The position numbers and the translations under genes were made by a program. This document shows positions 10,400-51,056 of a stretch of 51,374 nt of DNA, piece by piece (the first letter of the stretch is position 1; each line of letters starts with the position of its first letter). The stretch is from Cyclobacteriaceae bacterium. Lineage in GTDB: Bacteria > Bacteroidota > Bacteroidia > Cytophagales > Cyclobacteriaceae. The stretch is taken from assembly GCA_019638285.1 (NCBI GenBank), contig JAHBUB010000027.1, positions 1 to 51,374 of the forward strand, written 5' to 3'. Below the pieces are notes generated by a model that was not told the origin of the DNA, did not search any database, and worked only from the letters and a program-made list of their open reading frames with translations.

Positions 10400-10414
10400 T
10401 ACTAAAGTAAATTT
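10400..10414 (-). promoter_or_regulatory. Candidate shared regulatory motif, copy 2
   Basis: Read on the minus strand, this is AAATTTACTTTAGTA, 14/15 identical to 9377-9391. It overlaps AGTAAA-T-TTTACT (10406-10418), a perfect 6-base inverted repeat with a 1-base centre, 20 bases before the lipoprotein start. An operator is possible but unproven. Confidence 0.2.
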
Positions 10415-10438
10415 TACTCACATTAAACATTAAATCGA

Positions 10439-11182: not shown

Positions 11183-11229
11183 CAAGTCAACCCAATAACT
11201 AAAACAATCTTAAACATATAAATTTTTAA

Positions 11230-11697: not shown

Positions 11698-11723
11698 GAT
11701 TGATTTAAAAGGATTTTAATTTT

Positions 11724-12400
11724 ATGAATACCGAATCCTATATCCCCGCGCTTAAGTTCGATTGGCTCACAAAATTGTATGATCCGGTAGTAGGTGCGTT
11801 AATGCCGGAAAAACAATTTAAAAGCGCCTTGATCGAACAGGCTAGTTTGGAGCCAGGGAGCCGGGTTCTGGATTTTGGTTGCGGATCGCTTACCCTTTCC
11901 CTCAGGCTGCTGAAAAACGTCCTGACACAAATCTTCATGCCATTGATGTGGACAAGAATATATTAACCATTGCCGAAAGGAAGCTAATGAAATCAACAGC
12001 GAAAGTCACACTACTTCACTACGATGGTCATACGCTTCCTTTTGGCGATGGTTATTTCGATAGAGTGGTATCAAGCCTTGTATTTCATCACTTAACCCGG
12101 GAGCAAAAACGGCAGGCACTGCGTGAAATTTTCCGGGTTCTAAAACCCAATGGTGAATTGCACATTGCCGATTGGGGAAAGGCTAGAAACTTGTTCATGA
12201 GGGGCGCGTTTTATTTCGTTCAGATTCTTGATGGATTTAAAACCACCACCGACAATGTAAAAGGCTTGTTGCCAGAATATATTAATCTAGCAGGGTTTGA
12301 AGATGTGACAGAAACAAAATCATTTGCAACAATGCTTGGAACATTATCTTTATATAAAGGCATCAAACCCCAAAACGATGGACCAACAACCGCTCATTAA
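11724..12400 (+). pseudogene. SAM-dependent methyltransferase paralogue 2, single-base frameshift
   Basis: Homologue of the methyltransferase at 6546-7211. The first ~60 codons (MNTESYIPALKFDWLTKLYD ... DFGCGSLTLS) read from 11724. The rest (QAAEKRPDTNLHAIDVDKN ... SSLVFHHL ... ADWGKA ... TLSLYKG) continues in the frame one base back, with the switch at about 11895-11905. Restoring one base (for example a C after TCCCTC) would give one ORF of about 225 residues, against 221 in the intact copy. Apart from the shift the sequence looks conserved, so the loss is recent or an assembly error. The stop overlaps the next gene by 23 bases. Confidence 0.82.
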
Positions 12401-13634: not shown

Positions 13635-13651
13635 TTTAAACTAAACCAACT

Positions 13652-16006
13652 GTGAGACTTTCAATCCTATATATCCAGAATCTGTTTTCCTTAATAAACG
13701 GATTTTTCAAACTCAATTATATTGGGTTGTCAGCACTGTTCACACTAACCATTTCAGCAGTAAGTGCACAGCACGCCAACCACCAAACAGAAAGGAGTCT
13801 TGAACAGACGGTTAAGCATGCAAATAGAAAGCGGGTAGAATATGACCTTTATGTGAAAGACACGTTGGTAAACTACACCGGCAAAGTAAGAAAGGCCATT
13901 GCCTTGAACGGCCAAATTCCAGCTCCTATATTATTTTTTACGGAAGGTGACACCGCCATCATTCGAGTGCATAATCAAATGAAGGTAGAAACGTCCATTC
14001 ATTGGCATGGATTATTACTACCCAATGAACAAGACGGAGTACCCAACCTGACCACCGCTCCAATTGAAGCAGGCAGCACGCACACGTTTACATTTCCACT
14101 CATTCAATCGGGCACGTATTGGTATCACTCGCATACCCTGTTGCAAGAGCAATCTGGTATTTATGGCTCTATTGTGATTTATCCGCCCGAGGGAAAAGAG
14201 AAAAAGGAAAAAGTAATCATGCTTTCGGACTGGACAAACGAAAACCCTCACGAAGTGCTTCGATCACTGAAGCGGGGTTCGGATTGGTATGCCATCAAGA
14301 AAAATTCTGTTCAGAGCTGGGGAGAAGCTTTAACCAAAGGTTACTTCAAGGATCGGGCTAAAACAGAATGGGTACGTATGCCTGCTATGGATATTTCAGA
14401 TGTGTACTACAACCGATTTTTCATCAATGGTACATCGGAAGGCACATGGAACGAGGGCAAACCCGGTGATAAGGTCCGTCTCAGAATTATCAACGGTGGA
14501 TCATCATCGTATTTCTGGTTGCAATATGCGGGAGGTAAAATGAAAGTCGTTGCTGCAGATGGCCTGAACGTAGAGCCGGTGGAGGTGGATAAAATCCTAA
14601 TTGCAGTTGCTGAAACGTATGATGTGGAAGTCATAATACCCGATGATGGGATGGCCTACGAATTTCGGGCCACCGCACAGGATATTTCAGGATATGCTTC
14701 TTTGTTTTTAGGTGAAGGCATGAAAATGAATGCACCCGATCTGCCCAGGGTAAACTACTTCGAGATGATGCGCGACATGAACAACATGGGTAAGATGGGG
14801 AGTATGGATATGTCGGGGATGAAAGGAATGGACATGGGTGATATGAAGGGTATGGACATGAAGCAAATGAACATGGCCGACACAACACATCAAGGTCACA
14901 AGATGGAAAAAGATTCATCTATGGTGGATATGGAAATGGATTCCACCATGTCCATGCCGATGGACACCACCATGAAAGATATGGACATGACAGGTATGGA
15001 TATGAGCAGCATGAACATGGGCAACATGGAAGAAGTCACCCTTTCTTATGATATGCTGCGATCGCCACAACCCACTACGCTGGATCAGGATAAAACCATG
15101 CGCGAAATTAAGCTCACTCTTACTGGCAACATGATCCGCTATGTATGGTCGTTTGATAACAAGACGCTTTCGCAATCGGATAAAATTATGATTCGCAAAG
15201 GTGAAAATGTGCGAATGACGTTGGTGAACAACACCATGATGCGTCACCCTATGCACTTGCATGGCCATTTCTTCCGGTTTATCAATGAGCAGGAGGAATA
15301 TGCACCTATGAAGCACACGTTTGATATTCAGCCAATGCAAAGTGTGACCATTGAATTTTACGCCAACGAAGAGAAAGACTGGTTCTTTCACTGCCACATA
15401 CTTTATCACATGATGGCAGGAATGGCACGGGTGGTGAGCTACGAAAATTCACCATCTAATACCCAGGTTTCCGATAAAGATCAACGCAAACTCTTCAAAG
15501 AAGACAAGATGCCTTTCTTGTGGGGCCAGACAAAAGTTGCCAGTGATGCTGTCTTTGGATTTGTGAGTCTGTCCGGAAACAGGGGGATACTAGGATCCAC
15601 CTACAGGGTAAGTTATAAAAATCAATATGAGTTTCAACCCGACTACGAGCGGTTTCTTGACAAGCGACAGTTCTTCTCAGCCTATGTCGGAGCCGATATC
15701 AGAAACACAAGACAGGTAATAGAAAGTGGAAAGCTTATAAACAGACAGGTAGGGGTGTTGGGTATTCGTTATTTGTTACCAATGTTTTTGTTGACTGAGT
15801 TGAGGATTGACCACCGGGGCGATGTTCGGTTTCAGATTGCACGAAACGATATACCGATCACCAAGAGACTGCGCCTTAGCCTGGTTGCTAACACAGATAG
15901 AGAGTATAATATTGATTTTGATTACTACATACACAAATACATTGCCATACATGGTTCTTACGATTCTGATTATAAGTTTGGAACTGGAATAACTTTTCTT
16001 TGGTAA
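13652..16006 (+). CDS. CopA-like multicopper oxidase with Met-rich insert and C-terminal outer-membrane-barrel-like (CopB-like) extension
   Basis: 784 residues, longer than typical CopA (about 550-650). A hydrophobic signal-like N-terminus ends near AVSAQ (the GTG start gives a long n-region). Copper blocks: H117-W-H119-G, W-Y-H159-S-H161, H532-P-M-H535-L-H537-G, and H580-C581-H582...H586...M591. Between cupredoxin domains lies a Met-rich segment (residues 372-459) with 30 Met in 88 residues, mostly MxM/GMDM-type repeats, expected to bind Cu(I). After the oxidase ends (about 600-620) there are about 160 residues with alternating hydrophobic/polar strands, ending FGTGITFLW, an aromatic C-terminus like that of outer-membrane beta-barrels and resembling the CopB/PcoB barrel. 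This could tether the oxidase to the outer membrane. The 30-Met insert also explains His-rich reading on the opposite strand, which is not a gene. Confidence 0.92.
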   Translation: MRLSILYIQNLFSLINGFFKLNYIGLSALFTLTISAVSAQHANHQTERSLEQTVKHANRKRVEYDLYVKDTLVNYTGKVRKAIALNGQIPAPILFFTEGDTAIIRVHNQMKVETSIHWHGLLLPNEQDGVPNLTTAPIEAGSTHTFTFPLIQSGTYWYHSHTLLQEQSGIYGSIVIYPPEGKEKKEKVIMLSDWTNENPHEVLRSLKRGSDWYAIKKNSVQSWGEALTKGYFKDRAKTEWVRMPAMDISDVYYNRFFINGTSEGTWNEGKPGDKVRLRIINGGSSSYFWLQYAGGKMKVVAADGLNVEPVEVDKILIAVAETYDVEVIIPDDGMAYEFRATAQDISGYASLFLGEGMKMNAPDLPRVNYFEMMRDMNNMGKMGSMDMSGMKGMDMGDMKGMDMKQMNMADTTHQGHKMEKDSSMVDMEMDSTMSMPMDTTMKDMDMTGMDMSSMNMGNMEEVTLSYDMLRSPQPTTLDQDKTMREIKLTLTGNMIRYVWSFDNKTLSQSDKIMIRKGENVRMTLVNNTMMRHPMHLHGHFFRFINEQEEYAPMKHTFDIQPMQSVTIEFYANEEKDWFFHCHILYHMMAGMARVVSYENSPSNTQVSDKDQRKLFKEDKMPFLWGQTKVASDAVFGFVSLSGNRGILGSTYRVSYKNQYEFQPDYERFLDKRQFFSAYVGADIRNTRQVIESGKLINRQVGVLGIRYLLPMFLLTELRIDHRGDVRFQIARNDIPITKRLRLSLVANTDREYNIDFDYYIHKYIAIHGSYDSDYKFGTGITFLW

Positions 16007-35653: not shown

Positions 35654-38600
35654 TTATGCAATGATTCGAACATGGTGTTCCGCCCCATCGTCTACGAGTA
35701 CAATCCAATTATCGTTTTGCTCCACATCGTCTACCGCCATACTTGTTTCGTCTGCGTTCTTCTTTTGAGTGACTTCAATATCATAAACCGTTTCTTTATA
35801 TCGATATTGTACTTTGAATGACTTCCATTCCTCAGGAATGCAGGGATTCACTTTCAATTTATCTCCCTGCTGTTCCAACCCAAGAAATGATTCTATAATA
35901 AGGCGATACAACCATGCTGCTGATCCCGTATACCACGTCCACCCACCGCGTCCTGCATGTTGTGTACCTGCATATACATCGGCTGCCAGTACGTAGGGTT
36001 CTACTTTATAAGTCGCTATCGCTTCCGGTGTGTTGCCATGGTTGATCGGGTTGATCATATTCAGCAATTCCCATACCCGTTTGTTATCGCCCAATTTTGC
36101 AAAGGCCATGATCAACCAAACTGCAGCATGCGTGTATTGTCCCCCGTTTTCCCTTACTCCCGGTACGTATCCTTTAATGTAACCGGGGTTTAGCGCAGAC
36201 TTGTCAAATGGAGGCGCCAATAATTTAATGATCCCCACGTCTTTTTGAACAAGGTGCTGATAGGCCGATTCCATTGCCTCATGTTCACGGCTTGAATCAG
36301 CGGCTTCTGACAGTACCGACCAGCTTTGTGCAATGGAGTCAATTTTACATTCTTCATTTACAGCGGAGCCCAACGGGGTGCCATTGTCAAACCAGGCGCG
36401 CTTATACCATTTTCCATCCCAGGCATTCTTATCTATATTTTCCTTTAGTTGCTTTGCCTGATGATTGCATTCCTCGGCAAATGCCGAATCATTATTTAGA
36501 CGGGCAGTCTCTTCAAACTGTATGAGTATCTCATAAAGAAAAAATCCCATCCAAACGCTTTCCCCCTTGCCATGGTTTCCTACCTTATCATAGCCATCGT
36601 TCCAATCACCTGTTCCAATGAGAGGAAGGCCATTTTCTCCAAATCGCCATGCATGTTTGATTGCTCGTACACAATGATCATAAAGCGAGGTAGATGTACC
36701 TGAGGTAAATGGAAGGTCAAAATAAGACTCTTCATCCGGATTGAGCGGACGCCCTTCCAGAAAGGGTACTGTCTCATTAAGTACCTCTGTATCTCCGGTG
36801 TGTAATACATAGCGAGCAGTTACCAAGGGCAGCCATAGGAAATCATCTGATATTCGGGTGCGCACCCCTCTTCCCACCGGTGGATGCCACCAGTGCTGCA
36901 CATCTCCTTCTTTAAATTGGCGGGATGCACTCAATAAAATTTGCTTGCGGGCAAGTTGAGGTGCTGCATAGAGAAGGGACAACACATCCTGCAATTGATC
37001 TCTGAAGCCAAAAGCACCTCCCGATTGATAAAATCCACTGCGTCCCCAAAGTCGTGATGACAGCGTTTGGTAGGTAAGCCATCCATTGGCCAATATATTA
37101 ACAGCCAGATCGGGCGTTTCTATTTGCAAGGTTCCTACCGTTTGCTTCCAGTATTTTTTTACTTTCTCCAATGATTCGTCAGCGGCCTCGCTTCCACGAA
37201 ATTGGTGTACGATTCGGCTCGCCTCGTTGGCATCTTTTCCGGCACCCAGTCTGAAAATAATTCTTTGTTCCTCCCCGTCCATCAGTTCAATCGGAACCTG
37301 AATGGCTGCACAAGGATCCAGGGCCAAGCCTGTTTTTCCTGAAAGTTTTTTTCGCAATAGGCCATCCGGACGCTGCAATGTTCCGTTTCGTCCCAAGAAT
37401 TCTGTGCGATCAGCTGTAATGGATTTTTTTAATTGATCCACATCAAAAAATGCAACCCGCTTATTGAATTCAATATTATAGGGGTTTTTCGCAAAGAGTG
37501 CTCCGCTATCCGGATCCACCTCAGTGCGAATGTGCATTATCGATTTTGACCGATTGTTATCAAGCACCCATTCGGCATATCCAGTAGCAGATACCTTACG
37601 CGGTCGCCCGGACTCATTGCGAATTTTTATTACAGTGAATTTAACCGCTGCTTCCAGGTCTACATACACTACCATTTCAGAATAAATACCATCTTCACGG
37701 TGTTCAAATACACTATACCCAAAACCGTGGCGTACGACATAGGGTGTGTTTCCCCCTGCAGGAAGAAGGGATGTGGACCAAAAATGTCCACTCACCTCAT
37801 CGCGGAGATAAAATGCTTCTCCACTGGTATCACTAATAGAATCATTCCTCCATGGAGTAAGTCGAAACTCATGGGCATTTTCGGTCCATGTATAGGCTGA
37901 TCCATTTTCAGAAATAACCGATCCGAAATCCGGGTTGGCGATTACATTTACCCAAGGGACCGGTGTTTTTGTTTTATTGTCCACGAGCATCACATACTCA
38001 TTGCCCTGCTTATTGAAGCCCCCTACCCCATTGAAAAATGTCAAATCTTTAGGTGGTGAAATTGGCGTTGCCAGAGTTTTAATTTTCTGGCCTGATGAGA
38101 AGTAGGAGATTTCAGCTTTAGCAGGCAGGGTCCGATTGACCTGATCAGTCAAGGTTCCACCGTTATCCGAAATGCAAATACGCGCTGTCGTTTGAAATAA
38201 TATCTGATCTTCATAGGATACTTGTTCCGATGCCCTTACGAAAATTCCTCCAGGCCGATCTCTTAGTTCGTCAGGAATTAAGGCCTGTATCTCATTTTGA
38301 AACACCTGTCGGTACCCATAATGTCCCTCGTGCCAAATCACCAGATCAACCATGAGCCCTTTTGTTCTCCAGTAAGAATGTGCCTTTACCAATTGTTTGG
38401 CTAATTGCATATTGCTTTGTTTCTCAATTCTCAGCAAAACAATAGGAAGATCACCAGAGACAGAATAAGCCCACAGTTCGGATTGTTGCCTGTGGTTGTT
38501 GATAAGAACAGATGGGTCTGCACGGAAAGAGGTGTTGTTGTAAAGTATCGAACTGGCCAGTCGCCCATACAGTTGTGCATCTGCTTCTGTGGCATTGATC

Positions 38601-40684
38601 TGACGCAGGACTACCTGACTGTGTGTCCATGCCAACTCAAAGACACGATCTGAATGATGTTTGTCCTGGTATTTACCAATCAAATTCTGACAGATCTCCT
38701 TCGTATCACCCACTCCAGTCACCATATCAAACGTTACTGTTTCTCCAGGATCAAGTATGACGACATATCGGATGGCGACTATCGGATCCAATACAGCACC
38801 TTGATTGCCTGCGAGTGGTCCCCCTGACTTCATTGCTCTCGGATTCACAGCAGTATTGCCACGACCAATAAATTCCATCCGGTCCGTTTCATAGGATATT
38901 TCTTCCGTCACTTTTTCTTGCAGTGTCATTAGATGAAACATCACCGGTGTTGGTTCCTCTACAGACCGCGGCCTCCGTTTGCAAAGAATGGCATGTTGCT
39001 GGGGAAGAACCTCCGTTTGTACAAAGAGATTGTTGAACAGGGGTTGCATGATATCAGATGCTGCCGGTGCTAACACGACTTCTGCATAGCTCGTCACTTC
39101 AATTTCTCTGCGTGCAGAAGAATTGTTTGACACCCGCATTCTCCGCATTTCAATATCGTCTTCGGGCGACACCACCATTTCTGTATGCGTTTCGATTTCA
39201 TTGTGTGTGGAATGAAAATCTGCACGTCCCACGGAAAACACCGCCTCGTATTTTTCTTCTTTGGTCAGTGTGGGTTGATGCGTATTCGACCAATAGGTGT
39301 TGCTTTCTACATCTCTTATATAACAAAATGCGCCCCAGTTATCGCGGGTGCCATCTTCACGCCAACGTGTTACTGCCAGGTCTTTCCAGCGGCTGTAACC
39401 ACCTCCTGCATTGGTTATCATTACATGGTAGCGGCCGTTTGATAATAGCTGCACTTCCGGTATGGGGGTGTTGGGTGTATCGATCTCTCTTGATTCGGTA
39501 CCCTTTGCGACATATCCCACATCCGCAATGTCGGTGGTGTGTGCATAAAAGACTGTGGCACGTGGGATGCGTTCCTGCAAAAGCAACAAGGCCGACTCAA
39601 ATTGAGGTTCTGCTTCAAATAGTTTTTGCATGGGTTTGTCATGTAGTAAATAGGCTACAGACAACAAACTCATTCCCTGGTGGTGCGACATATAGGAATA
39701 GATAATGGCACTGGTTTGTCCTCGTTGCAAGCGTGAAGGGGTATAGTCTACCGCTTCGTAAAATCCGTAGCGTCCTTCTAATCCTTCTTTGCGAAGTAGC
39801 TTCAGGTTTTCATATGCTTCTTTGGGCGCTATCATTAATGCAAGCGCTGACGCATACGGAGCAATCACTGAATCTTCTTCGAGACCCCGTTTCAAACCAA
39901 GGCCGGGCGCACCAAATGCTCGGTATTGATAATGGGAACTGGCATTGATCATATTATAGCCAGATTCTGAAATGCCCCATGGTTTGCCCGTTTTCTTTCC
40001 GTAATGAATCTGCCATTCCACCGCTGCCTTGCACGTCTGGTCAAGTAACGTGTTCTCGAAAGTAGGCATGATCAACAGCGGCATCAGGTATTCAAACATT
40101 GAGCCGCTCCAGGAGAGAAGAATTGGATCACCCTCCACATTGGTGAGCAGTCGACCCAGCGCAAACCAGTTTTCAACCGGCACTTTCCCTTGGGCAATGC
40201 AGACAAAGCTTCCTAACCGCGCTTCGGAAGCAAGCAGATCGTAATACCCTGCATCCAATCTGCGGTCCTTCACATTGAAACCAATTGCAAATAAATTGTT
40301 GGATCGGTTATACAAAAAGTCCCATTTTATGTCCGCCAATTCACTGCATTGTTTTGCCAGAATTTTGGTCAATGCAATTTGCTTGTCCACGTGTTCTATT
40401 GATCTTGCAATGGCCATTTCCAGTTTTTCAATCCAATCGTCTTCTGCAATTGATCTCCTGGTTGCCCGATATTTTCTCACTTCTTCCAGCCATTCTTCTG
40501 TGGTTGACCTCCATTGGCTTAAAGCAGTGTTCGGCTTTACTGCACCAAGTGCTGCAAGTTCCGGAGGCACAGTTTTCAATAAGGACCAGGGCATGAAAAT
40601 CTCCCATTCCTCCCTTAAAGAAGCCATCTGATTTTTGAATGCACTCCTCCAATAGTGCGTTTCATTGTTTGAGTCCGTCTCCAA
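35654..40684 (-). CDS. ndvB: Cyclic beta-1,2-glucan synthase, C-terminal subunit (cyclisation half-domain plus GH94 module)
   Basis: 1676 residues. From about 1-80 there is a helical linker, then the second half of the glycoamylase-like cyclisation domain (NLFAIGFNVKDRRLDAGYYD, LLSWSGSMFEYLMP, PWGISESGYN, SHHQGMSLLS). Two GH94-associated beta-sandwich segments follow (about 420-700 and 920-1130), and finally the GH94 phosphorylase domain with GDWNDG at 1359-1364 and its conserved Asp pair. The start is TTG at 40684, 17 bases after the upstream stop; the reading frame shifts and a TAG lies in its own frame upstream, so it cannot be read straight through. Together with the 1207-residue upstream product the total (2883) equals the usual NdvB length. 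GH94 activity would set glucan length by phosphorolysis. Confidence 0.9.
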   Translation of the reverse strand: METDSNNETHYWRSAFKNQMASLREEWEIFMPWSLLKTVPPELAALGAVKPNTALSQWRSTTEEWLEEVRKYRATRRSIAEDDWIEKLEMAIARSIEHVDKQIALTKILAKQCSELADIKWDFLYNRSNNLFAIGFNVKDRRLDAGYYDLLASEARLGSFVCIAQGKVPVENWFALGRLLTNVEGDPILLSWSGSMFEYLMPLLIMPTFENTLLDQTCKAAVEWQIHYGKKTGKPWGISESGYNMINASSHYQYRAFGAPGLGLKRGLEEDSVIAPYASALALMIAPKEAYENLKLLRKEGLEGRYGFYEAVDYTPSRLQRGQTSAIIYSYMSHHQGMSLLSVAYLLHDKPMQKLFEAEPQFESALLLLQERIPRATVFYAHTTDIADVGYVAKGTESREIDTPNTPIPEVQLLSNGRYHVMITNAGGGYSRWKDLAVTRWREDGTRDNWGAFCYIRDVESNTYWSNTHQPTLTKEEKYEAVFSVGRADFHSTHNEIETHTEMVVSPEDDIEMRRMRVSNNSSARREIEVTSYAEVVLAPAASDIMQPLFNNLFVQTEVLPQQHAILCKRRPRSVEEPTPVMFHLMTLQEKVTEEISYETDRMEFIGRGNTAVNPRAMKSGGPLAGNQGAVLDPIVAIRYVVILDPGETVTFDMVTGVGDTKEICQNLIGKYQDKHHSDRVFELAWTHSQVVLRQINATEADAQLYGRLASSILYNNTSFRADPSVLINNHRQQSELWAYSVSGDLPIVLLRIEKQSNMQLAKQLVKAHSYWRTKGLMVDLVIWHEGHYGYRQVFQNEIQALIPDELRDRPGGIFVRASEQVSYEDQILFQTTARICISDNGGTLTDQVNRTLPAKAEISYFSSGQKIKTLATPISPPKDLTFFNGVGGFNKQGNEYVMLVDNKTKTPVPWVNVIANPDFGSVISENGSAYTWTENAHEFRLTPWRNDSISDTSGEAFYLRDEVSGHFWSTSLLPAGGNTPYVVRHGFGYSVFEHREDGIYSEMVVYVDLEAAVKFTVIKIRNESGRPRKVSATGYAEWVLDNNRSKSIMHIRTEVDPDSGALFAKNPYNIEFNKRVAFFDVDQLKKSITADRTEFLGRNGTLQRPDGLLRKKLSGKTGLALDPCAAIQVPIELMDGEEQRIIFRLGAGKDANEASRIVHQFRGSEAADESLEKVKKYWKQTVGTLQIETPDLAVNILANGWLTYQTLSSRLWGRSGFYQSGGAFGFRDQLQDVLSLLYAAPQLARKQILLSASRQFKEGDVQHWWHPPVGRGVRTRISDDFLWLPLVTARYVLHTGDTEVLNETVPFLEGRPLNPDEESYFDLPFTSGTSTSLYDHCVRAIKHAWRFGENGLPLIGTGDWNDGYDKVGNHGKGESVWMGFFLYEILIQFEETARLNNDSAFAEECNHQAKQLKENIDKNAWDGKWYKRAWFDNGTPLGSAVNEECKIDSIAQSWSVLSEAADSSREHEAMESAYQHLVQKDVGIIKLLAPPFDKSALNPGYIKGYVPGVRENGGQYTHAAVWLIMAFAKLGDNKRVWELLNMINPINHGNTPEAIATYKVEPYVLAADVYAGTQHAGRGGWTWYTGSAAWLYRLIIESFLGLEQQGDKLKVNPCIPEEWKSFKVQYRYKETVYDIEVTQKKNADETSMAVDDVEQNDNWIVLVDDGAEHHVRIIA

Positions 40685-40701
40685 GGCTTGAAAAAACTAT
40701 T

Positions 40702-43700
40702 TCAAAACTCTTTTTCTGTGGCTTCCAAATATGCCATTATTGCTACATAGGTAAGGTCCTCTGTATCACACGCAGTTTCGAGAGTGATTTTACATTGTTT
40801 TAGCACTGCGCTATTTTTTTCCTCTAAGGTGTCACTGAGTACCCTCCATGTGTCGCGCAAGCCATGGAATGACTTTGGACTCAGTATTGAATGATGCGGT
40901 ATGGCCAAAAGTTCCTGCTTGAGAATAAGTAAGTGTCCCACCAGGTTTCCACTGTCTACCACAGAAATATATTTAGGCAATAGCGGTTCAAGAGATTGTA
41001 TGTCGTACCAGTTGTAAAAATGTCCATTGAATCTTTCCATGCGCTGCAGTGTGCTCATGGTTTTGGCTGTTCGATCAATAAATTGACTGGTGGTTATATA
41101 TCCAAAATCACGGGCGGTTATATTGGAGAGCAAAGAGAGTCCAATATTAGTTGGTGAAGTGCGGTAGGCCACCATTGCTACCGGCTGTTCCTGTATGTTA
41201 TCAGGGGGTAACCAGTGGCCATTTGCTATCACAAGCTCTTCAAAAAAGCCCCAGGTTTTACGCGCCATTTTTCTCAGGAACATCTTTTTCTCAGGTGTGA
41301 GTTTGAATGCCTGTTTTTTCAGTGGTTGGCTGGTCCACCAAATAACGATGGGCGCTGCAATCCAAAACAAAAGAATGGGGCCAGCAATAAATAATTTTTT
41401 CGGATAAAGAAGGATGATCTCGGCAAGTACCACAACAGCGAGCAGCAACTCCATCCACATAAAAGAATAGGTACCCATCAAACTAATTTGACTGGCCTTC
41501 AACTGAGTGTTTGACACGTTCCATTGGAGCAAATTTTTTCGGCTGACCAACAGTCTCCAAAGTGTAAGCCCTATTGTCATTGCATTTGCACACGCCTCGT
41601 AGGGCAAGCTAATCAGCCTGAATGAGGTCATCACAAAAACTTCCTTAATGCTATGAACAGAGTTTTTAATGTGATGAATTAAGACAACATCTTTCGGTTT
41701 TCGAATGGTCTCCCACATGGAAGTAATGATGATTGGCACCAGGATAATTGAAGACACCGTCATGGTCCAGAATAAGGCAGAGGACAATGCCGTCCATCCT
41801 ATTATGATTAGCGTGGTAAGGGCTATGGGAACAAGGCTCCGTCTGATATTGTCGAATATTTTCCAGCGTGATAGTGCAGAAATCACATTTTTATGCCAAT
41901 GTCTATCTGCACCGGGGACAATTGGGAAAATCCATGGGAGAATCTGCCAGTCCCCCCGAATCCAGCGGGATACCCTTTTCATATCCTCCCGGTAACTGTT
42001 GGGGTACTCCTCGTACAATTGAACGTCACTCAACAATCCAGATCGCACGTGAGCACCTTCCAGAAGGTCATGGCTTAATATTCTGTTCTCTGGAAATCTT
42101 TCTCCTAATACTTTTATAAAAATATCTACCTCATAAATTCCTTTGCCTATGAATGACCCCTCTGCAAACAGATCCTGATACACATCTGATGAGGCACGGG
42201 TGTATGGATCAATTCCGGGTTCATCTCCATGCAAGCGCCTGTACAGCGAGCCATTTTCATTTGACAAGCTTACTGATACTCTGGGCTGAAGAATCCCGTA
42301 CCCTTTTGTTATTCGTTTCTTTCTCTCATCATACCATGCATGATTTAATGGATGCGCCATTGCTCCCACCAATTTCCATGCTGATCCCAACGGCAGTTTG
42401 GTATCCGCATCCAGGGTAATTATATATTTTATTTGCGGAAAAACAGAAGGGTTACCCACAATGAGAGAAAAGCGGTCTTTTGCACCGCCTCGCAATAGTG
42501 CATTTAACTCCAGAAGCTTTCCTCGTTTTCGTTCATAGCCCATCCAACAGTTTTCATTCGGATTCCAAAGTCGCGGGCGATGGAAGAGATAAAACAAGTC
42601 GTTGTTCTTTCTCTTATATTTTTTATTCAGTTCTTCTATTCTTTTTTGGGCCAAATCAACCAGGGGCTGGTCTTCGGGAAGGGATTGTTGTGCTGCGTCT
42701 GTAAAATCGGTCAATAAGCCAAAATGTAAATTGTCATTTCTGTTTGCCAGAAATCGTACTTCCAATGCATCCAATAAGTTTTCAATTTCTTTTTCATTGC
42801 TCAGCATGACTGGAATCACCACCAGTGTGCGAAATTTTGCAGGGATGCTTTTAGAAAAATCCAGGCGGGGCAGCAGGCGAGGTTTAACGAATAAGGTAGA
42901 TAAAAAGTTAACCAAAGAAATAGCGAGCTGACTTACACTTAGGAGGGTTAAAAAAACAATCAATCCAAGAAACCATTTATTGTCTACTTCTAAGCCGGCA
43001 TTTATTAAAATAGCTGCACTCACAAAAACCGTGATTAAGAAAATAAGGGATAGGTATGCCTGAAAAGAAAATCGTTGCAACAAATACCTAAACCTTTTAA
43101 GGGCAGGTTCGCGTGCTTTTGCTTGCGCTTTTGTTTCAATCACTCCACGGCCTATCAGGTAATAACCTACGTGGGATGTACGGATGTCTCCTTTTTTAAG
43201 TACATTTTTTCGAGCCAATGCGATGGCGATTCGCGCTACCCCCACTTCTGATTGTTCGCTAATTTTTGCAATGCGTTCCACCACATGTCGGTACCTGTCG
43301 CGGGTGGAGAAATCCATTGATTCATATACTCCCCCGTGGTCCTGACGAAGGGTCTGTTCCACCACACTGTGCGCCTCCACAAAATTAGTCCAATCCATTA
43401 ACCCCAATTCTCTGAGGCTATTGATGCTGTTGCTGATGGAAACCTGATCTGTTGCCTGTGTTTGATTTTCAGCATTTACCAACTCTCCACTCGTCAAACC
43501 ACTCTTTGACAATTGTTGTTCAATCCAATTAAGCACCATGGCCAAGTCCGGTCCCTTGCCCCGAAGCTGCCGTATCAGTTCAGAAACAAATGCCGCGCTC
43601 ATGGGAGGGTTTGAGCGGGCCATTTCTGCGATCACAAGAATAAGGTCTGTGGATTCTACCTCGATAATTTCAAACATCTTCTTGGCCCAATGATCGGCCA

Positions 43701-44325
43701 GATTTCTGTCGACCCTATCAATGGCTACGCGTGCAGAGACACGCCTTATGTTTTCGATCAATCCAAGTCGAAGCATGATCGGGATGGCCCATAGTTCTCC
43801 CAACTTTAAATAAGTGACCGACTGATACGCTTCAATAAAGTCGCCCAAACGATCAATGTCTATTCTCCCATCGCTGTGTGCTATTTTCTGTAATGTGATG
43901 TCATAAATCCTGGTACTCCCTTCTAATGAATCCCCAGCAAGTTGTGGAAGGTCTTCACTGTACCCCTTTGGAAAATGGATCTTAGCATTTCGAATGTGTT
44001 CCTCCAGGAGATAGAAATTGTCGAGCAACCATTCGCCTGCCGGAGTGATGATGTGATTGCTCTTTACAGAATCGGTAAGAAGTTGACGCACGTTGTGCAA
44101 AATGGACTCATTGCTTTCCAGTCTTTTGAGTAAATATTCCTTTGCCGGTTCTTTGCTTAGTCGATGTGTTTCGGCCAGTGTTTTCCCGAAACGCTTCAAC
44201 TGATCCGCATTGAACAGTTCTGCTCTTAAAGGTTCTTCATTTATGTAATTTTGATTGGAGCCTTTGTCATGAAAAAGGCTCTTCATTTCTGCTATAAGTT
44301 CGTGTGCTGCCGGTCTCAATTTCAT
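40702..44325 (-). CDS. ndvB: Cyclic beta-1,2-glucan synthase, N-terminal subunit (GT84 glucosyltransferase)
   Basis: 1207 residues, membrane-embedded. After a long N-terminal helical region come TM helices (about 415-435, 443-470), the GT84 catalytic domain with D639-A-D641 (UDP-glucose/metal site) and R787-W-I-R-G-D-W-Q794 in the QxxRW-type region, further TM helices (about 810-860, 920-1000), and the first half of the glycoamylase-like cyclisation domain (TSPTNIGLSLLSNITARDFG, FYNWYD, VDSGNLVGHLL). The protein ends KEF at TGA 40702-40704, in the helical linker of that domain. It makes linear then cyclic beta-1,2-glucan from UDP-glucose and exports it to the periplasm. Start overlaps the pgm stop (ATGA). 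Confidence 0.92.
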   Translation of the reverse strand: MKLRPAAHELIAEMKSLFHDKGSNQNYINEEPLRAELFNADQLKRFGKTLAETHRLSKEPAKEYLLKRLESNESILHNVRQLLTDSVKSNHIITPAGEWLLDNFYLLEEHIRNAKIHFPKGYSEDLPQLAGDSLEGSTRIYDITLQKIAHSDGRIDIDRLGDFIEAYQSVTYLKLGELWAIPIMLRLGLIENIRRVSARVAIDRVDRNLADHWAKKMFEIIEVESTDLILVIAEMARSNPPMSAAFVSELIRQLRGKGPDLAMVLNWIEQQLSKSGLTSGELVNAENQTQATDQVSISNSINSLRELGLMDWTNFVEAHSVVEQTLRQDHGGVYESMDFSTRDRYRHVVERIAKISEQSEVGVARIAIALARKNVLKKGDIRTSHVGYYLIGRGVIETKAQAKAREPALKRFRYLLQRFSFQAYLSLIFLITVFVSAAILINAGLEVDNKWFLGLIVFLTLLSVSQLAISLVNFLSTLFVKPRLLPRLDFSKSIPAKFRTLVVIPVMLSNEKEIENLLDALEVRFLANRNDNLHFGLLTDFTDAAQQSLPEDQPLVDLAQKRIEELNKKYKRKNNDLFYLFHRPRLWNPNENCWMGYERKRGKLLELNALLRGGAKDRFSLIVGNPSVFPQIKYIITLDADTKLPLGSAWKLVGAMAHPLNHAWYDERKKRITKGYGILQPRVSVSLSNENGSLYRRLHGDEPGIDPYTRASSDVYQDLFAEGSFIGKGIYEVDIFIKVLGERFPENRILSHDLLEGAHVRSGLLSDVQLYEEYPNSYREDMKRVSRWIRGDWQILPWIFPIVPGADRHWHKNVISALSRWKIFDNIRRSLVPIALTTLIIIGWTALSSALFWTMTVSSIILVPIIITSMWETIRKPKDVVLIHHIKNSVHSIKEVFVMTSFRLISLPYEACANAMTIGLTLWRLLVSRKNLLQWNVSNTQLKASQISLMGTYSFMWMELLLAVVVLAEIILLYPKKLFIAGPILLFWIAAPIVIWWTSQPLKKQAFKLTPEKKMFLRKMARKTWGFFEELVIANGHWLPPDNIQEQPVAMVAYRTSPTNIGLSLLSNITARDFGYITTSQFIDRTAKTMSTLQRMERFNGHFYNWYDIQSLEPLLPKYISVVDSGNLVGHLLILKQELLAIPHHSILSPKSFHGLRDTWRVLSDTLEEKNSAVLKQCKITLETACDTEDLTYVAIMAYLEATEKEF

Positions 44326-45980
44326 GGATTACTTTCCTTTACTTCCAACGCCTCGCTGAGAATGCTTTGCGCTTCTTCCACGATTCGATTCATGTGCTCC
44401 TCGCTCAAAAAACTTTCAGCGTAGATTTTTTGAATGGGCTCCGTACCCGAAGGTCTTGCCGCAAACCACCCGTTCTTTGTACTTACTTTAAGGCCACCTA
44501 TTGGTGCATTATTTGCCGGTGCATGGGAGATGATGTGTTCAATTTTTTCTCCGGCCAAGTTTTCCCTGCTTATCTGTAAGATAGCAATATTTTTCAACTT
44601 CTCTTTTTGTTCTGGCGTACTTTTCGCTTCTACGCGTTGATAAAATGATTCTCCCAATTCTTGCGTGAGTTCGTGGTACAATGTACCGGGATCGCGTCCA
44701 GTTTTGGCTGTAATCTCTGCTGAGAGCAATGCAGGAATAAATCCATCCTTATCGGTGGTCCACAACTCCCCATTCATTCGTGAAAATGTTGCACCTGCAC
44801 TTTCTTCCCCGCCAAAGCAAAGCGTGCCGTCCATCAAACCATCCACAAACCACTTGAAGCCGACAGGAACTTCGTAAAGTGGTCGCTTCATTTTTGCCGC
44901 TATGCGATCGATGTGTTGTGTAGTCACTACAGTTTTCCCAATCGCTGCTGTTTTGTTCCACCCAGGTCGGTGCTGCAACAGATATTGAATGGCCACTGCT
45001 AAATACTGATTTGGATTTAAGAGACCCGCACTTTTAGTAACAATTCCATGTCGGTCATAATCGGTGTCACACGCAAACGATATATCAAACCGATCTTTCA
45101 TCGCGATCAATCGCTGCATGGCGTAAGGAGATGAGGGATCCATACGGATTTGTCCGTCCCAATCCACCGACATAAAACCAAAGGTTGGGTCAATAATTTT
45201 GTTAACCATCGTTAAGTCAAGATGATAACGTTCTGCCATTGGCTCCCAGTAGTGAATGCCGGCTCCTCCCAAAGGGTCTACCCCCATCTTAATTCCAGAA
45301 TTGCGAATCACCTCCATGTCGACAATACTCCCCAAATCATTGATGTATGTGTTGAGATAATCGTGACGATGGACATGAGAAGTACTCAGCGCCTTGTTCA
45401 GCGGAATTCTTTTTATACCCCTGAGTTTGTCTTTCAGCAGTTCATTTGCCTTTGCCTCAATCCATTGCGTCACTTCCGTTCCGGCAGGCCCTCCATGCGG
45501 AGGATTGTATTTAAATCCACCATTGTCAGGAGGGTTGTGTGAAGGTGTAATCACAATGCCATCTGCCCTGCTCGTTTTTCGCCCCTGATTGTATTTCAAA
45601 ATGGCGTGTGAAATAACGGGAGTAGGTGTATACTCATCCTTGATAGAAATCATCACATCTACCTCATTGGCCACCAAGACCTCCATGGTAGTAGCAAAAG
45701 CAGGTGCAGAAAGCGCATGTGTATCAAATCCCAGAAATAAGGGACCGTTGATTTTGCGCTCCTTGCGATACATGCAAATGGCTTGTGAGATTGTCAGAAT
45801 ATGATTTTCATTAAAAGCGTCTTTCAAAGAAGACCCACGGTGACCTGAAGTTCCAAAAGCAACCCGTTGCTCGCGTTCGAAAGGATCGGGCGTACCCGTA
45901 TAATAGGCTGTAATGAGCCTTGGGATGTTTACGAATATTTCCTGCTCTGCAGGCTTTCCAGCAAGAGAAGATATGTTCAT
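44322..45980 (-). CDS. pgm: Phosphoglucomutase
   Basis: 552 residues of the alpha-D-phosphohexomutase family converting glucose-6-phosphate and glucose-1-phosphate. Active-site Ser147 in TPSHNPP, Mg-binding DTDYDRHG, sugar-binding GGEESAG, and the phosphate-binding RPSGTEPIQKIYAES near the end are all present; length fits the Pgm type rather than PgcA. It links the pentose phosphate/hexose genes with glucan synthesis because glucose-1-phosphate is the UDP-glucose precursor; no UDP-glucose pyrophosphorylase is in the window. Coupled by an ATGA overlap to the glucan synthase gene. Confidence 0.95.
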   Translation of the reverse strand: MNISSLAGKPAEQEIFVNIPRLITAYYTGTPDPFEREQRVAFGTSGHRGSSLKDAFNENHILTISQAICMYRKERKINGPLFLGFDTHALSAPAFATTMEVLVANEVDVMISIKDEYTPTPVISHAILKYNQGRKTSRADGIVITPSHNPPDNGGFKYNPPHGGPAGTEVTQWIEAKANELLKDKLRGIKRIPLNKALSTSHVHRHDYLNTYINDLGSIVDMEVIRNSGIKMGVDPLGGAGIHYWEPMAERYHLDLTMVNKIIDPTFGFMSVDWDGQIRMDPSSPYAMQRLIAMKDRFDISFACDTDYDRHGIVTKSAGLLNPNQYLAVAIQYLLQHRPGWNKTAAIGKTVVTTQHIDRIAAKMKRPLYEVPVGFKWFVDGLMDGTLCFGGEESAGATFSRMNGELWTTDKDGFIPALLSAEITAKTGRDPGTLYHELTQELGESFYQRVEAKSTPEQKEKLKNIAILQISRENLAGEKIEHIISHAPANNAPIGGLKVSTKNGWFAARPSGTEPIQKIYAESFLSEEHMNRIVEEAQSILSEALEVKESNP

Positions 45981-46016
45981 TTCAACCTTGTTAAGTTAAA
46001 TACTCATTTATAAAAA

Positions 46017-47090
46017 CTACGCCACACCAATTTTCTTTTCCAAATACACATCCTGTATGGCGTGTAGCAATTCAACACCGTCTTTCAATGGTTTCTGAAA
46101 TGATTTTCTTCCCGAGATTACACCCATGCCTCCTGCACGCTTATTAATAATTGCAGTGCGAACAATTTCCTTCAGGTCTTTTTTTCCCAGTGAGGGTCCT
46201 CCTGAGTTGATAAGGCCCGCTCTTCCCATAAAGCAATTCGCAACCTGATAGCGGCACAGGTCAATGGGATGGTCGGTAGTCAATTTTGTGTACATGCGCT
46301 CGTCTATTTTTCCGTAGTGAACTCCATCCACATTAAGCGCTTTGTACCCGCCATTATTCTCAGGAAGCTTTTGCTTAATAATATCTGCCTGAATGGTTAC
46401 TCCGAGATAATTCGCCTGACCTGTCAGATCCGCAGATGCATGATAGTCTACCTTCTCTTTTTTAAACGCACTGTTGCGCAAATAGCACCATAAAACAGTG
46501 GCCATCCCTAATGAATGGGCCTCTTCAAACACTTTCGAGACTTCTATAATTTGTCTATCCGACTCTTGCGATCCAAAATAGATGGTGGCCCCAATGGCCG
46601 CAGCTCCCAGGTTCCATGCGTCCCGCACTGACCCAAACATAATCTGGTCAAATTTATTTGGATAGGTGAGCAATTCATTGTGATTGACTTTTACGATGAA
46701 AGGAATCTTATGGGCATATTTTCTCGCCACTATTCCCAAACCGCCAATGGTACTGGCTACTGCATTGCAACCCCCTTCCATGGCCAACTTTACAATATTT
46801 TCAGGGTCGAAATATATTGGATTCACGCTGAACGATGCCCCTGCACTGTGTTCTACACCCTGATCGACCGGTAAAATAGAGAGATAGCCCGTTCCGGAGA
46901 GTCTCCCTGTATTAAAAATCAAATCCAGGTTGCGAAGTGTTTGGGTGTTTCTATTCGAATTCACCATCATGCGATCAATGAAATCAGGTCCCGGAAGATG
47001 CAGATTCTGTTTTGGGATTGTTTTACATTGATGTGAAAAAAGAGATTCTTCCTCTTTTCCTATTAGATCAATAATTTCCTGGTATTTCAT
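46017..47090 (-). CDS. fbaB: Class I fructose-bisphosphate aldolase (DhnA/FbaB type)
   Basis: 357 residues. The DhnA-type TIM barrel is seen in [39 protein letters not shown] and [13 protein letters not shown]. It cleaves fructose-1,6-bisphosphate to two trioses or runs in reverse. The exact Schiff-base lysine is not assigned here. Located 36 bases before pgm and 19 bases after pgi in one operon. C-terminus ...KIGVA is intact. Confidence 0.93.
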
Positions 47091-47109
47091 TTCTAATTAT
47101 TGTTTTCAA

Positions 47110-48756
47110 TTAATTGCGCCATTTTTTGTAAGCGTTGATCAGTCCGTTTGTAGAAGCGTCATGTGTCGAAACTTTTGTGTCACCCTTCAATTCGTCCAAA
47201 ATTTTTATGGCCAATTGTTTTCCGAGTTCCACACCCCATTGATCGAAACTGAAAATATTCCAGATGACACCCTGAACGAAAATTTTATGTTCATACAGTG
47301 CAATCAATGATCCCAGAGAAAATGGAGTGATTTCCTTTAGTAAAAAGGAATTGGTAGGATAGTTGCCCTTAAAAACCTTAAATGGTATCACTTTTTCCTT
47401 ACGCGCTTCTTTATCATCCTTCATCTCATTGGCTACCTCCTCTTTGCTCTTCCCATTCATCAATGCTTCCGTTTGCGCAAAATAATTGGCTAGTAGGATC
47501 GCATGATGGTCCCCTATTGGGTTATGAGAGATCGCAGGGGCAATAAAGTCACATGGAATTAAATGTGTGCCCTGGTGAATGAGTTGATAGAAAGCATGTT
47601 GCCCATTGGTACCTGGCTCGCCCCACACGATAGGGCCGGTTCTATAATCCACATCTATACCATTTCTATCGGTATGTTTGCCATTGCTCTCCATGTTGCC
47701 CTGTTGAAAATACGCAGCAAAGCGATGCATGTACTGATCATAAGGAAAGATTGCTTCTGTTTCAGAACCAAAAAAATTGGTATACCATATCCCTATCAGC
47801 GCCATGATCACAGGGATGTTGTTTTCAAAAGCAGTATGTCTAAAATGCAGATCGCTCTCGTGTGCCCCTCTCAGTAAGCTATCAAAATTATCGTAGCCAA
47901 TGGTAAGTGCTATGGAAAGGCCGATGCTGCTCCACAAACTATACCGACCCCCTACCCAATCCCAAAAAACAAATCTGTTTTCAGGAGCAATACCAAATTC
48001 TGCTACTTTCTCTTTGTTCGCGGATAACGCCACAAAGTGAAGTGCAATGTATTTCTCCTCTTTTGCTGATTCTAAAAACCATTTCCTGGCAGATTGTGCG
48101 TTGGTCATGGTCTCCAGCGTAGTAAATGTTTTTGAAGCAATGAGAAAAAGAGTCTCTTCTGCTTTCAGGTCTTTCAACACTTCCACCATCTGGGTTCCGT
48201 CAATATTTGAAATAAAGTGTGCCTGAATGCCTTCCACCCAATAGGAACGCAATGCTTCTGTCACCATCACCGGGCCCAGGTCACTGCCACCAATACCAAT
48301 ATTTACGATGTGTTTTATTTTTTTTCCTGAGTAGCCTCTCCACTTACCTCCGTGTACCTTCTCACAGAATATTTTCATTTGCAGTAATACTCTATTTATT
48401 TCCGGCATTATGTCCAAACCATCCAATACAACAGGCATATCGGAACAATTTCTTAATGCGGTATGAAGTACTGCCCTATTTTCCGTTTCGTTTATTTTCT
48501 CTCCGTTAAACATCGCTTCGATGGCCTCTTTCAACTTGCAATCGTTCGCCAGTTCGAGAAGGTGCTTTTTCGTTTCATCCGTAACAATGTTTTTTGAGTA
48601 GTCAAAAATAATTTCATTGAATGTGATACTCATCTTTTCAAACCGGGTGGCGTCCTCATCAAAAAAGGATTTCATGCGTTTATTTTTGATCTCTAGGTAG
48701 TGCGCCAAAAGTCTGTTCCACGCTGGCGTAGTGGTTGGATTTATTTTAGGAAGCAT
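47110..48756 (-). CDS. pgi: Glucose-6-phosphate isomerase
   Basis: 548 residues, normal length. Signatures are [19 protein letters not shown] (phosphate binding), [15 protein letters not shown], and [14 protein letters not shown] with the conserved Glu and His. It interconverts glucose-6-phosphate and fructose-6-phosphate, here between the pentose phosphate and glucan branches. It is 43 bases from pgl and in the same operon. Confidence 0.96.
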
Positions 48757-48799
48757 AGTAGTTTGTCATTTATCATCGTAAACCAAAACAGATTCTCTT

Positions 48800-49552
48800 T
48801 CAGGTTTGTCTTTCTTCTTTTAAAAGTGAGGCAGCCTCTTCGTCCAAATACCAGTGCAGGCTGTTGTGCGCTGGTTGTATCAACTGAGCCGGATATTGCT
48901 CCGGGTTGTATTCGTCTTCCAGCACATGACGCACCGCTTCCGCTTTTGATTTACCATATACCAGAAATACAATGTGTCGTGCCTGATTGATCAATGGGGC
49001 AGTCATGGTAATGCGATGGGTATTCACCTCCTTTAAAAAAACAGACTGAACCGTGGCCGAGGTATCGTGCAGTACTGCAGTGTGGGGAAATAGAGAGGCG
49101 GTATGTGCATTGCTTCCCAATCCCAAAAGAATCAAATCAAAAATCGGTTCGCGTCCTTTGAAATGTGAATTAATCCGAAATGTATAATCCCTGGCCGCTT
49201 CCACTGGTGAAAGCGAAGTGTCGACCGAAAAAATATTTGATTCGTGTATATACAATTCATCAAGAAACAATGTTCTTGCCATGTGGCTGTTGTTCTCTGG
49301 GTCGTCCGCAGGCACATCGCGTTCGTCTCCAAAGAAAAATTTGACTTTATCCCACGGTATCTTATTTCTGTAATCAGGTGATGCGAGGGCCTCGTACAGT
49401 TTCTGAGGAGAACTCCCTCCCGATAATACTAAGTTACATTCGCCACGTTTGGCAATCGCATCACGTACGTTTGCCATCATGTCATCGGCCAATGCTGTGA
49501 TTAATTCAGGTATTGATTGATAAACACGAATGGTTGCGTTATTTCTTTTCAT
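48800..49552 (-). CDS. pgl: 6-phosphogluconolactonase
   Basis: 250 residues of the DevB/Pgl family related to glucosamine-6-phosphate isomerase. Signatures are NLVLSGGSSPQKLYEAL, FFGDERDVPADDPENNSH and ILLGLGSNAHTASLFPH. It hydrolyses the lactone made by Zwf. The gene starts 14 bases inside zwf, indicating translational coupling. Confidence 0.95.
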   Translation of the reverse strand: MKRNNATIRVYQSIPELITALADDMMANVRDAIAKRGECNLVLSGGSSPQKLYEALASPDYRNKIPWDKVKFFFGDERDVPADDPENNSHMARTLFLDELYIHESNIFSVDTSLSPVEAARDYTFRINSHFKGREPIFDLILLGLGSNAHTASLFPHTAVLHDTSATVQSVFLKEVNTHRITMTAPLINQARHIVFLVYGKSKAEAVRHVLEDEYNPEQYPAQLIQPAHNSLHWYLDEEAASLLKEERQT

Positions 49553-51056
49553 TTTTTATTGGAGGAGTAATCCAATGAAAACCGTCCTGGGCTATTAAGG
49601 CTTCTGCCGTTTCCGGCCCCCATGAGCCCACTCTGTAGTTGGGGAAGTTGACACTCATTTTCGATTGCCATGAATTGAGTATCGGCATGAGAATTTTCCA
49701 CGCTGCCTCTACCTGATCGGCACGCATAAAAAGCGTCTGATCGCCCATCATGGTATCTAGCAGCAAAGTTTCATATGCTTCGGGGGTTTCCACCGTATAG
49801 TTGCCCGCATAATCAAATAGTAAGTCCACCGTATTTAAGATCATATCCAACCCCGGCTTTTTCATTTGCAACTGCAGACGAATGCTCATCTCCGGTTGAA
49901 TGCTGATAATCAGTCTGTTTTGCTGCCAGTTGTCAGTCGCTGAGGACGGAAACACCACATGCGGAACATCACGAAATTGAATGGTGATGATGGAAGACGA
50001 TTGAAGAAGGCGTTTCCCTGTGCGTACATAAAACGGTACGCCTTGCCAACGCCAATTGTCAATGAAAAATTTTATAGCCACAAATGTTTCCGTGTTGGAT
50101 TGTGGGTCTACGTTGGCTTCCTCCCTATAGCCTGCTACTTGCTTGCCTTCTATCCATCCTTTCTCATATTGGCCTCTGACAGCTTGCTTGCGAATGGCAT
50201 CTGGCTCGAATTTTCGTAAGGATCGCAACACATCTACCTTGCGGTTGCGCACCTCGTCTGCATCAAAAGAAATAGGAGTTTCCATTGTGATCAGGCAAAG
50301 CAATTGCAGGACATGGTTCTGTACCATATCGCGCAAAGCCCCAGCGCTTTCGTAGTAATTTCCCCGGTCCTCCACCCCTATTTGCTCGGAGACTGAGATT
50401 TGCACATGTTCAATAAAATTGCGGCTCCATATCGGCTCCAGAATAGAGTTGGCAAAACGAAATGCCATTATGTTTTGAACTGCCTCTTTCCCCAGGTAAT
50501 GATCTATGCGATAGATTTGTTTCTCATCAAAGATGCTTCCCAAAAGTTCATTCAATGATTTGGCCGACTCAAGATCACGACCAAAAGGCTTTTCAATAAC
50601 AATCCGTGTGGTGTCTGGATTGCCTGTTAATTTATTCTTGGCAATATTTTTTGCAATAATGGGGAAGAAATTAGGCGCCACAGCCAGGTAATAAATTACA
50701 CAAGGCTCTTTCTTCCATTCCTTGGTGTGATCAAGAATCGCTTTCCCAAATTTTGCATATTCCTTTTCATCATTGAGATCAGACACTTGATAGAATACAT
50801 GAGCTGCAAAATCAGACCATTCGCTATCTTTTGATTTTCCTTTTCTTGAAAATTGATCGATGCCTTCTCTTAACTTGCTGCGAAACTTATCTTCCGTTAA
50901 AGGAGTACGCGCTGTACCTATAATGGAGAATTGGTTGGGCAGCCAATCATCCAAAAATAAATTATAAAGAGCCGGAGTAATTTTGCGCCAGTTTAAATCA
51001 CCGGTTCCCCCAAAGATGAAGAATATTATTGGCTGGTCTTTTGTATTGGCTGGCAT
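49539..51056 (-). CDS. zwf: Glucose-6-phosphate 1-dehydrogenase
   Basis: 505 residues. The NADP site is FGGTGDLNWRK (residues 15-25), and the substrate site R183-I-D-H-Y-L-G-K190 plus GNYYESAGALRDMVQNH are intact. It feeds glucose-6-phosphate into the oxidative pentose phosphate branch. The upstream gene gndA ends 47 bases before its start, and the stop lies within pgl by 14 bases. Confidence 0.97.
   Translation of the reverse strand: MPANTKDQPIIFFIFGGTGDLNWRKITPALYNLFLDDWLPNQFSIIGTARTPLTEDKFRSKLREGIDQFSRKGKSKDSEWSDFAAHVFYQVSDLNDEKEYAKFGKAILDHTKEWKKEPCVIYYLAVAPNFFPIIAKNIAKNKLTGNPDTTRIVIEKPFGRDLESAKSLNELLGSIFDEKQIYRIDHYLGKEAVQNIMAFRFANSILEPIWSRNFIEHVQISVSEQIGVEDRGNYYESAGALRDMVQNHVLQLLCLITMETPISFDADEVRNRKVDVLRSLRKFEPDAIRKQAVRGQYEKGWIEGKQVAGYREEANVDPQSNTETFVAIKFFIDNWRWQGVPFYVRTGKRLLQSSSIITIQFRDVPHVVFPSSATDNWQQNRLIISIQPEMSIRLQLQMKKPGLDMILNTVDLLFDYAGNYTVETPEAYETLLLDTMMGDQTLFMRADQVEAAWKILMPILNSWQSKMSVNFPNYRVGSWGPETAEALIAQDGFHWITPPIKNEKK

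What the first reader, a model, noticed from the sequence alone, without database searches (positions are those of the whole stretch)
40684..40704. Cyclic beta-1,2-glucan synthase split into two genes inside its cyclisation domain
The NdvB-type synthase is normally one protein of about 2800 residues. Here the first gene (1207 aa) stops with TGA in the middle of the glycoamylase-like cyclisation domain: TSPTNIGL...VDSGNLVGHLL is in gene 1, and NLFAIGFNVKDRRLD...SHHQGMSLLS is in gene 2. Gene 2 restarts at TTG, 17 bases later and in another frame, with a TAG in its own frame upstream. Neither half has internal stops and lengths sum to 2883. Either a true two-subunit enzyme that must reassemble the domain, or a recent break. 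The linker helix at the break makes functional fission plausible.
Basis: partly seen in the sequence, partly recalled or inferred. Interest (0 to 1): 0.75.

Follow-up and report, generated by a model that had tools for sequence, protein, structure and literature searches.

The report
Sugar-ring enzyme gene broken in two
In this one genome the large enzyme gene that makes ring-shaped glucose chains is cut into two reading frames at a spot that other enzymes of the family can do without, so it may still work as two pieces, may be freshly broken, or may be a local sequence error.

Summary
[quoted passage not shown] Gene 1 ends at TGA 40704-40702; gene 2's frame opens only after TAG 40699-40697. 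The TGA precedes the TAG, so no single frameshift joins them. The closest relative found (85/89% aa) is one intact 2890-aa gene, and 83 of 83 loci covering both sides of this spot have one frame there, so the split is private among what was searched. Against that relative there is a net two-base difference within about 15 bp and no other uncompensated frame change inside 8.67 kb. The break lies at a helix end in the helical insert of the GH189 cyclisation domain, a poorly conserved segment nearly absent from some intact CGSs. The GH189 catalytic residues checked remain, and both halves show purifying selection like their neighbours. No other gene in about 71 kb compared is frame-split, so general assembly error is unlikely; a local error is not excluded without reads. 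Most likely a real private break at a permissive site, possibly still a two-piece enzyme; recent loss of function is nearly as likely.

The parts
40702..44325 (-). Gene 1 (1207 aa): N-terminal region, GT84 glucosyltransferase with membrane part, and the first part of the GH189 cyclisation domain
   Evidence: matches Agrobacterium Cgs 8rf0 23-1117 (E 3.6e-211) and TiCGS cyclisation domain 8wy1 10-164
35654..40684 (-). Gene 2 (1676 aa): rest of the GH189 cyclisation domain and the GH94 phosphorylase part
   Evidence: Glycoamylase PF10091 147-357, two GH94_b-supersand stretches, Glyco_hydro_94 1178-1602; matches 8rf0 1264-2817 and 8wy1 282-574
40702..40704 (-). TGA stop of gene 1
40697..40699 (-). 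TAG in the frame of gene 2, upstream of its first start-like codon
40682..40684 (-). TTG, first start-like codon of gene 2; aligned with a leucine CTG codon in the nearest intact relative, so probably not an ancestral start; ATGs follow at 40627 and 40594
40693..40712 (-). Stretch with a net two-base length difference from the nearest intact relative, aligned as two single-base differences 12 nt apart; the alignment is not unique
40705..40941 (-). Gene 1 part of the helical insert (79 residues after VDSGNL)
40295..40684 (-). Gene 2 part of the helical insert (130 residues before LFAIGF)
39965..40225 (-). Span of the catalytic-residue equivalents E154, E198 and E240 of gene 2 (TiCGS E1356, E1400, E1442)
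   Evidence: spacing from the HH pair; alignment; residue roles
44322..45980 (-). pgm, phosphoglucomutase; its stop overlaps the gene 1 start (ATGA)
46017..47090 (-). class I fructose-bisphosphate aldolase
47110..48756 (-). pgi, glucose-6-phosphate isomerase
48800..49552 (-). pgl, Glucosamine_iso/6-phosphogluconolactonase family
49539..51056 (-). zwf, glucose-6-phosphate dehydrogenase

Best explanation
An ordinary single-chain CGS gene, last in a zwf-pgl-pgi-fba-pgm-cgs run of genes, suffered a small length-changing mutation in this lineage alone, inside the helical insert of its GH189 cyclisation domain. Ribosomes stop at TGA 40704 and part of them re-initiate 17 to 107 nt further on (TTG 40684, or ATG 40627 or 40594). 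That gives a GT84 + first-barrel-part polypeptide and a second-barrel-part + GH94 polypeptide, which associate through the helical insert and the other contacts of the parent enzyme, so that some glucan is still made. Shown: the split, its absence from the relatives searched, the place of the break, intact GH189 catalytic residues, and purifying selection over the time since the nearest relative diverged. Inferred: translation of gene 2, association and activity.
For: Net two-base difference within about 15 bp and no other uncompensated frame change inside 8.67 kb against the nearest relative; by my arithmetic two independent random indels would lie this close in about 0.3% of cases. Both halves have dN/dS 0.086 and 0.073 against that relative; five neighbouring genes 0.044-0.187. 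At 99 columns conserved in at least 90% of 71 relatives, the window deviates at 1 (relatives: median 3, maximum 11). TiCGS catalytic E1356 and E1442 and helper residues are present. The break is at a helix end in the insert (AF2 model of the intact relative, pLDDT 92.9; best PDB match 8wy1). The insert between two anchors is 45-50 residues in two loci and 152-253 in the rest of 50 frames. In Agrobacterium Cgs a stretch of around 120 residues protrudes as a 4-helix motif (passages of PMC10901819), and in TiCGS additional helices in the middle region are unique to CGSs (passages of PMC10834661); that these are this insert is inferred from position.
Against: No relative shows it: 83 of 83 covering loci in one frame, and 22 further genomes of the phylum have the match inside open frames of 2398-3106 aa (frame length only). 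dN/dS covers the whole time since the relative diverged, so it cannot show selection after a recent break. The cyclisation domain gained more changes on this lineage than on the sister lineage (37 vs 15; rest 67 vs 61; Fisher p 0.03, limits chosen after a first look; ML branch lengths 0.138 vs 0.089 there and 0.064 vs 0.060 elsewhere), as relaxed constraint would give; but unbroken pgm leans the same way (27 vs 15, p 0.09). No conserved start codon for gene 2. In Agrobacterium, Cgs truncated before the C-terminal part is inactive, so gene 1 alone should not suffice.
Confidence: 0.4

Rival explanations
1. A recent loss-of-function mutation: the gene is an early pseudogene, no full enzyme is made, and decay has not yet become visible elsewhere.
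For: Not seen in any relative searched, with the nearest relative intact at 85/89% aa identity. No second copy in the genome: the two GH94_b-supersand matches are both in gene 2. CGS is accessory in the genus: gene 1 has a match in 12 of 62 genomes, the window's own included and one weak, so absence is tolerated. Mild excess of lineage changes in the cyclisation domain. Frame breaks at other places of the gene are seen in draft relatives L023, L038, L050 and L096.
Against: Only one lesion cluster in 8.67 kb, lying in the one segment of the domain that some relatives mostly lack; conserved residues intact.
Confidence: 0.35
2. A local sequencing or assembly error in a homopolymer-rich AT stretch; the real gene is one frame.
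For: The stretch is rich in A and T runs, both length differences lie in it, everything else is intact, and the genome is an unnamed draft in 85 contigs without reads.
Against: 0 of 60 other G029 genes matched at 60% identity or more (about 71 kb aligned) are frame-split in this assembly (1.25 of 3.98 Mb of this genome sampled). Two errors, or one two-base error, would be needed here, and the stretch also holds ordinary base differences.
Confidence: 0.24
3. Programmed recoding joins the two frames.
For: A T-TTT-TTC run (slippery motif recalled, no call) lies between the TAG and the TTG.
Against: It lies after the gene 1 TGA, so ribosomes would first have to pass the stop. No single shift avoids both TGA and TAG. 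Relatives read this spot in one frame.
Confidence: 0.01

Closest known systems
Agrobacterium tumefaciens Cgs/ChvB (PDB 8rf0, 8rf9)
   Same: Same domain order and homology over both halves. The break falls between the two matched stretches (8rf0 1117 and 1264); that this is the ~120-residue 4-helix motif of the paper's passages is inferred, as they gave no residue numbers
   Different: One polypeptide of about 2800 residues
Thermoanaerobacter italicus CGS cyclisation domain (GH189, PDB 8wy1)
   Same: Best fold match of the intact relative's domain (TM 0.90-0.91); catalytic residues conserved in gene 2
   Different: Barrel on one chain; here the barrel is divided between two genes
   Same: 85/89% aa identity, same pgm-cgs neighbourhood
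   Different: One intact gene of 2890 aa
Clostridia/Tissierellia CGSs with a short cyclisation domain (e.g. L099, L072, L077)
   Same: Both window genes matched in order within one frame
   Different: Cyclisation domain about 420 aa against 588 in L022, lacking most of the insert in which the window gene breaks (length between anchors measured for L099 and L079 only)

Membership tests
[quoted passage not shown]
   all three regions found in order, over two genes (gene 1 by match to solved Cgs chains, not by Pfam)
[quoted passage not shown]
   two frames; relatives with complete genes have about 2.7-3.3 kaa in one frame
GH189 | Catalytic Glu pair (TiCGS E1356, E1442) with E1400, H1536 and H1537 | tested here: met
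   gene 2 E154, E240, E198, H334, H335, placed by spacing; alignment
GH189 | Continuous (alpha/alpha)6 barrel on one chain | tested here: not met
   Barrel residues divided between gene 1 (from about 1010) and gene 2 (to about 375)
[quoted passage not shown]
   Needs expression and assay
[quoted passage not shown]
   Only the GH189 residues were mapped
Conserved two-gene (fission) CGS | Same split in independent relatives | tested here: not met
   0 of 83 covering loci; none seen by open-frame length in 22 further phylum genomes

The most novel reading that the evidence does not exclude
A natural two-polypeptide CGS in which an (alpha/alpha)6 barrel is cut within its outward helical insert and reassembles from two chains, separating the glucosyltransferase from both cyclisation catalysts and the phosphorylase; the break became tolerable because it lies in a segment that the family can lose.
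Probability: 0.3. Interest if true: 0.55.

Novelty: new variant of a known kind. Interest (0 to 1): 0.32.

Why it matters
If both pieces are made and work together, this is a natural split version of a very large membrane enzyme. It would allow separate expression of synthase and cyclisation/phosphorylase parts and a direct test of what the CGS-specific helical insert does. If not, it is an ordinary private gene break or a local sequence error.

Tried and rejected
A single frameshift or one-base error: rejected, because the stop order TGA then TAG excludes one switch. General indel-rich assembly: not supported. First versions of that control listed other 'splits'. Those looked up (L133/L140, L160/L215, L179/L224, L161/L158) lie inside longer ORFs on the opposite strand. 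By their coordinates the window/L181 one is antisense to zwf, and the 217-residue window frame at 39051-39702 (query of one G029 'split') is antisense to gene 2; neither was looked up, nor was one short G029 ORF listed as truncated in the reverse comparison (L246 against L200). The cleaned version leaves only cgs. The control against G080 gave only 16 matched ORFs and was dropped as too small. A shared two-gene form in relatives: not found. Decay of conserved positions in the cyclisation domain: not found. Papers: the listings (20 of 110 papers; 20 of 46) showed no title or abstract start on a split CGS; of the papers, only passages of PMC10901819 and PMC10834661 were read. I make no wider claim about what is in print.

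Full report
What is there. On the minus strand, 40702-44325 encodes 1207 aa and 35654-40684 encodes 1676 aa, with 17 bases between the TGA and the first TTG in gene 2's frame. Three-frame translation shows gene 1's frame closing at TGA 40704-40702 and gene 2's frame opening only after TAG 40699-40697.

Identity. Gene 2 carries the Glycoamylase (147-357), two GH94 supersandwich and GH94 catalytic domains. Gene 1 has no Pfam match at 0.001, but matches solved Agrobacterium Cgs over 31-1137. Both halves match the same chains in order. The Thermoanaerobacter GH189 domain 8wy1 is matched at 10-164 by gene 1 and at 282-574 by gene 2. By spacing from the conserved HH pair, the TiCGS catalytic residues E1356 and E1442 and helpers E1400, H1536 and H1537 (roles from passages of PMC10834661) are E154, E240, E198, H334 and H335 of gene 2. 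GT84 and GH94 catalytic residues were not mapped. The genome has no second copy by the GH94_b-supersand family: its two matches are both in gene 2.

Relatives. In the genus, 12 of 62 genomes (the window's own included, one match weak) have a match to gene 1. Six relatives have frames of 2889-2918 aa: G029 2890, G003 2903, G080 2906, G027 2915, G020 2889 and G063 2918. Of 90 fetched loci with a match (80 of them, which kept the best 80 of 179; L014 left out as the same contig as L022), 83 cover both sides of the junction and all 83 have one frame across it; 7 do not cover one side (L021, L029, L040, L068, L086, L098, L110). Frame breaks at other places of the gene occur in L023, L038, L050 and L096. 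In 395 genomes drawn from the phylum, 25 have a match to the gene 2 part of the cyclisation domain. Besides the window, 21 of these have it inside open frames of 2874-3106 aa and G385 inside one of 2398 aa; G416 is in two pieces whose matches begin at positions 3 and 6 of their contigs; G451 is a weak hit in a 493-aa frame. These were judged by frame length only.

The lesion. In an alignment of the whole 8.67-kb span with the intact relative (83.3% identity), the length differences inside the gene other than those at the junction cancel out within a few bases or make whole codons (two more at the very 3' end are at the end of the alignment); at the junction the window is two bases longer, aligned as two single-base differences 12 nt apart. 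The placement is not unique. If two independent indels fell at random, they would lie this close in about 0.3% of cases (my arithmetic), so one complex event, a local error, or selection keeping the rest intact is more likely.

Where the break falls in the fold. Between the anchors VDSGN and LFxIG the segment has 45-253 residues in the 50 frames (49 distinct loci, L014 and L022 being the same contig) in which a simple pattern found both anchors; the shortest are L099 (45) and L079 (50), the next 152. The window has 79 + 130. Eleven Clostridia/Tissierellia domains, L079 and L099 among them, are 418-430 aa long against 588 in L022. An AF2 model of the intact relative's domain (71 sequences, mean pLDDT 92.9) puts the last gene 1 residue near the end of helix 192-212 and the gene 2 TTG position in the turn before helix 219-242. 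Foldseek's best matches are the two chains of 8wy1 (TM 0.90-0.91). In Agrobacterium Cgs the CY domain has a stretch of around 120 residues forming an outward 4-helix motif that takes part in a dimer contact (passages of PMC10901819); that this is the segment broken here is inferred from position.

Selection. Against G029, dN/dS is 0.086 for gene 1 and 0.073 for gene 2; neighbours are zwf 0.044, fba 0.066 (283 codons compared), pgi 0.076, pgm 0.080 and pgl 0.187. At 99 columns conserved in at least 90% of 71 relatives the window deviates once. Against my leading reading, changes polarised with G003 give 37 on the window's lineage and 15 on G029's in the cyclisation domain, against 67 and 61 elsewhere (Fisher p 0.03; domain limits set after a first look), and ML branch lengths agree (0.138 and 0.089 against 0.064 and 0.060). 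pgm, which is unbroken, gives 27 against 15 (p 0.09), and silent changes also favour the window's lineage in all three genes (48/36, 106/82, 150/112), so this is weak evidence of relaxed constraint.

Assembly quality. Of 336 non-overlapping G029 ORFs from 0.46 Mb, 61 have a best match of at least 60% identity in 1.25 Mb of this genome (31% of it). One of the 61 is frame-split: cgs. Frame errors are therefore not common here, but nothing tests this place itself.

Context. The gene is last in a run zwf-pgl-pgi-fba-pgm-cgs; pgm and gene 1 overlap by ATGA. The same genes lie in G029 over two contigs (85% and 81% DNA identity in the matched pieces), whereas the first 20 kb of the window match G029 only in pieces at 68-77%. 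The run supplies glucose phosphates and, through pgm, glucose-1-phosphate for UDP-glucose (pathway knowledge). Coupled translation makes a restart for gene 2 plausible, but this is inferred.

Verdict. I give 0.40 to a real break whose two products are still made and associate, 0.35 to recent loss and 0.24 to a local sequence error.

Noticed in passing
window 44322-51056: CGS is the last of a zwf-pgl-pgi-fba-pgm-cgs run shared with G029. The genome has a second match to the aldolase at G000:C34:91609-92464, so the run may be a separate sugar-phosphate supply set for glucan making.
   Followed up: partly
window 35654-51056, compared with 62 genomes of the genus: CGS is patchy in the genus (12 of 62 genomes match gene 1, one weakly), and the run is more similar to G029 (85% DNA) than the first 20 kb of the window (68-77% in pieces); transfer between lineages is possible.
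   Followed up: partly
L072, L073, L075, L077, L079-L083, L085, L099: Clostridia/Tissierellia CGSs with a cyclisation domain of 418-430 residues, apparently lacking most of the helical insert (length between anchors measured only for L099 and L079).
   Followed up: partly
L023, L038, L050, L096: CGS genes of four draft relatives have frame breaks at other positions.
   Followed up: no
window 57-16006: Metal-efflux type genes (AcrB family, OEP, two HlyD with heavy-metal-binding domains) and a multicopper oxidase.
   Followed up: no
window 11879-12400: Methyltransferase-like ORF whose best domain matches begin at profile positions 16-17 near a TTG start; its N-terminus may lie elsewhere.
   Followed up: no
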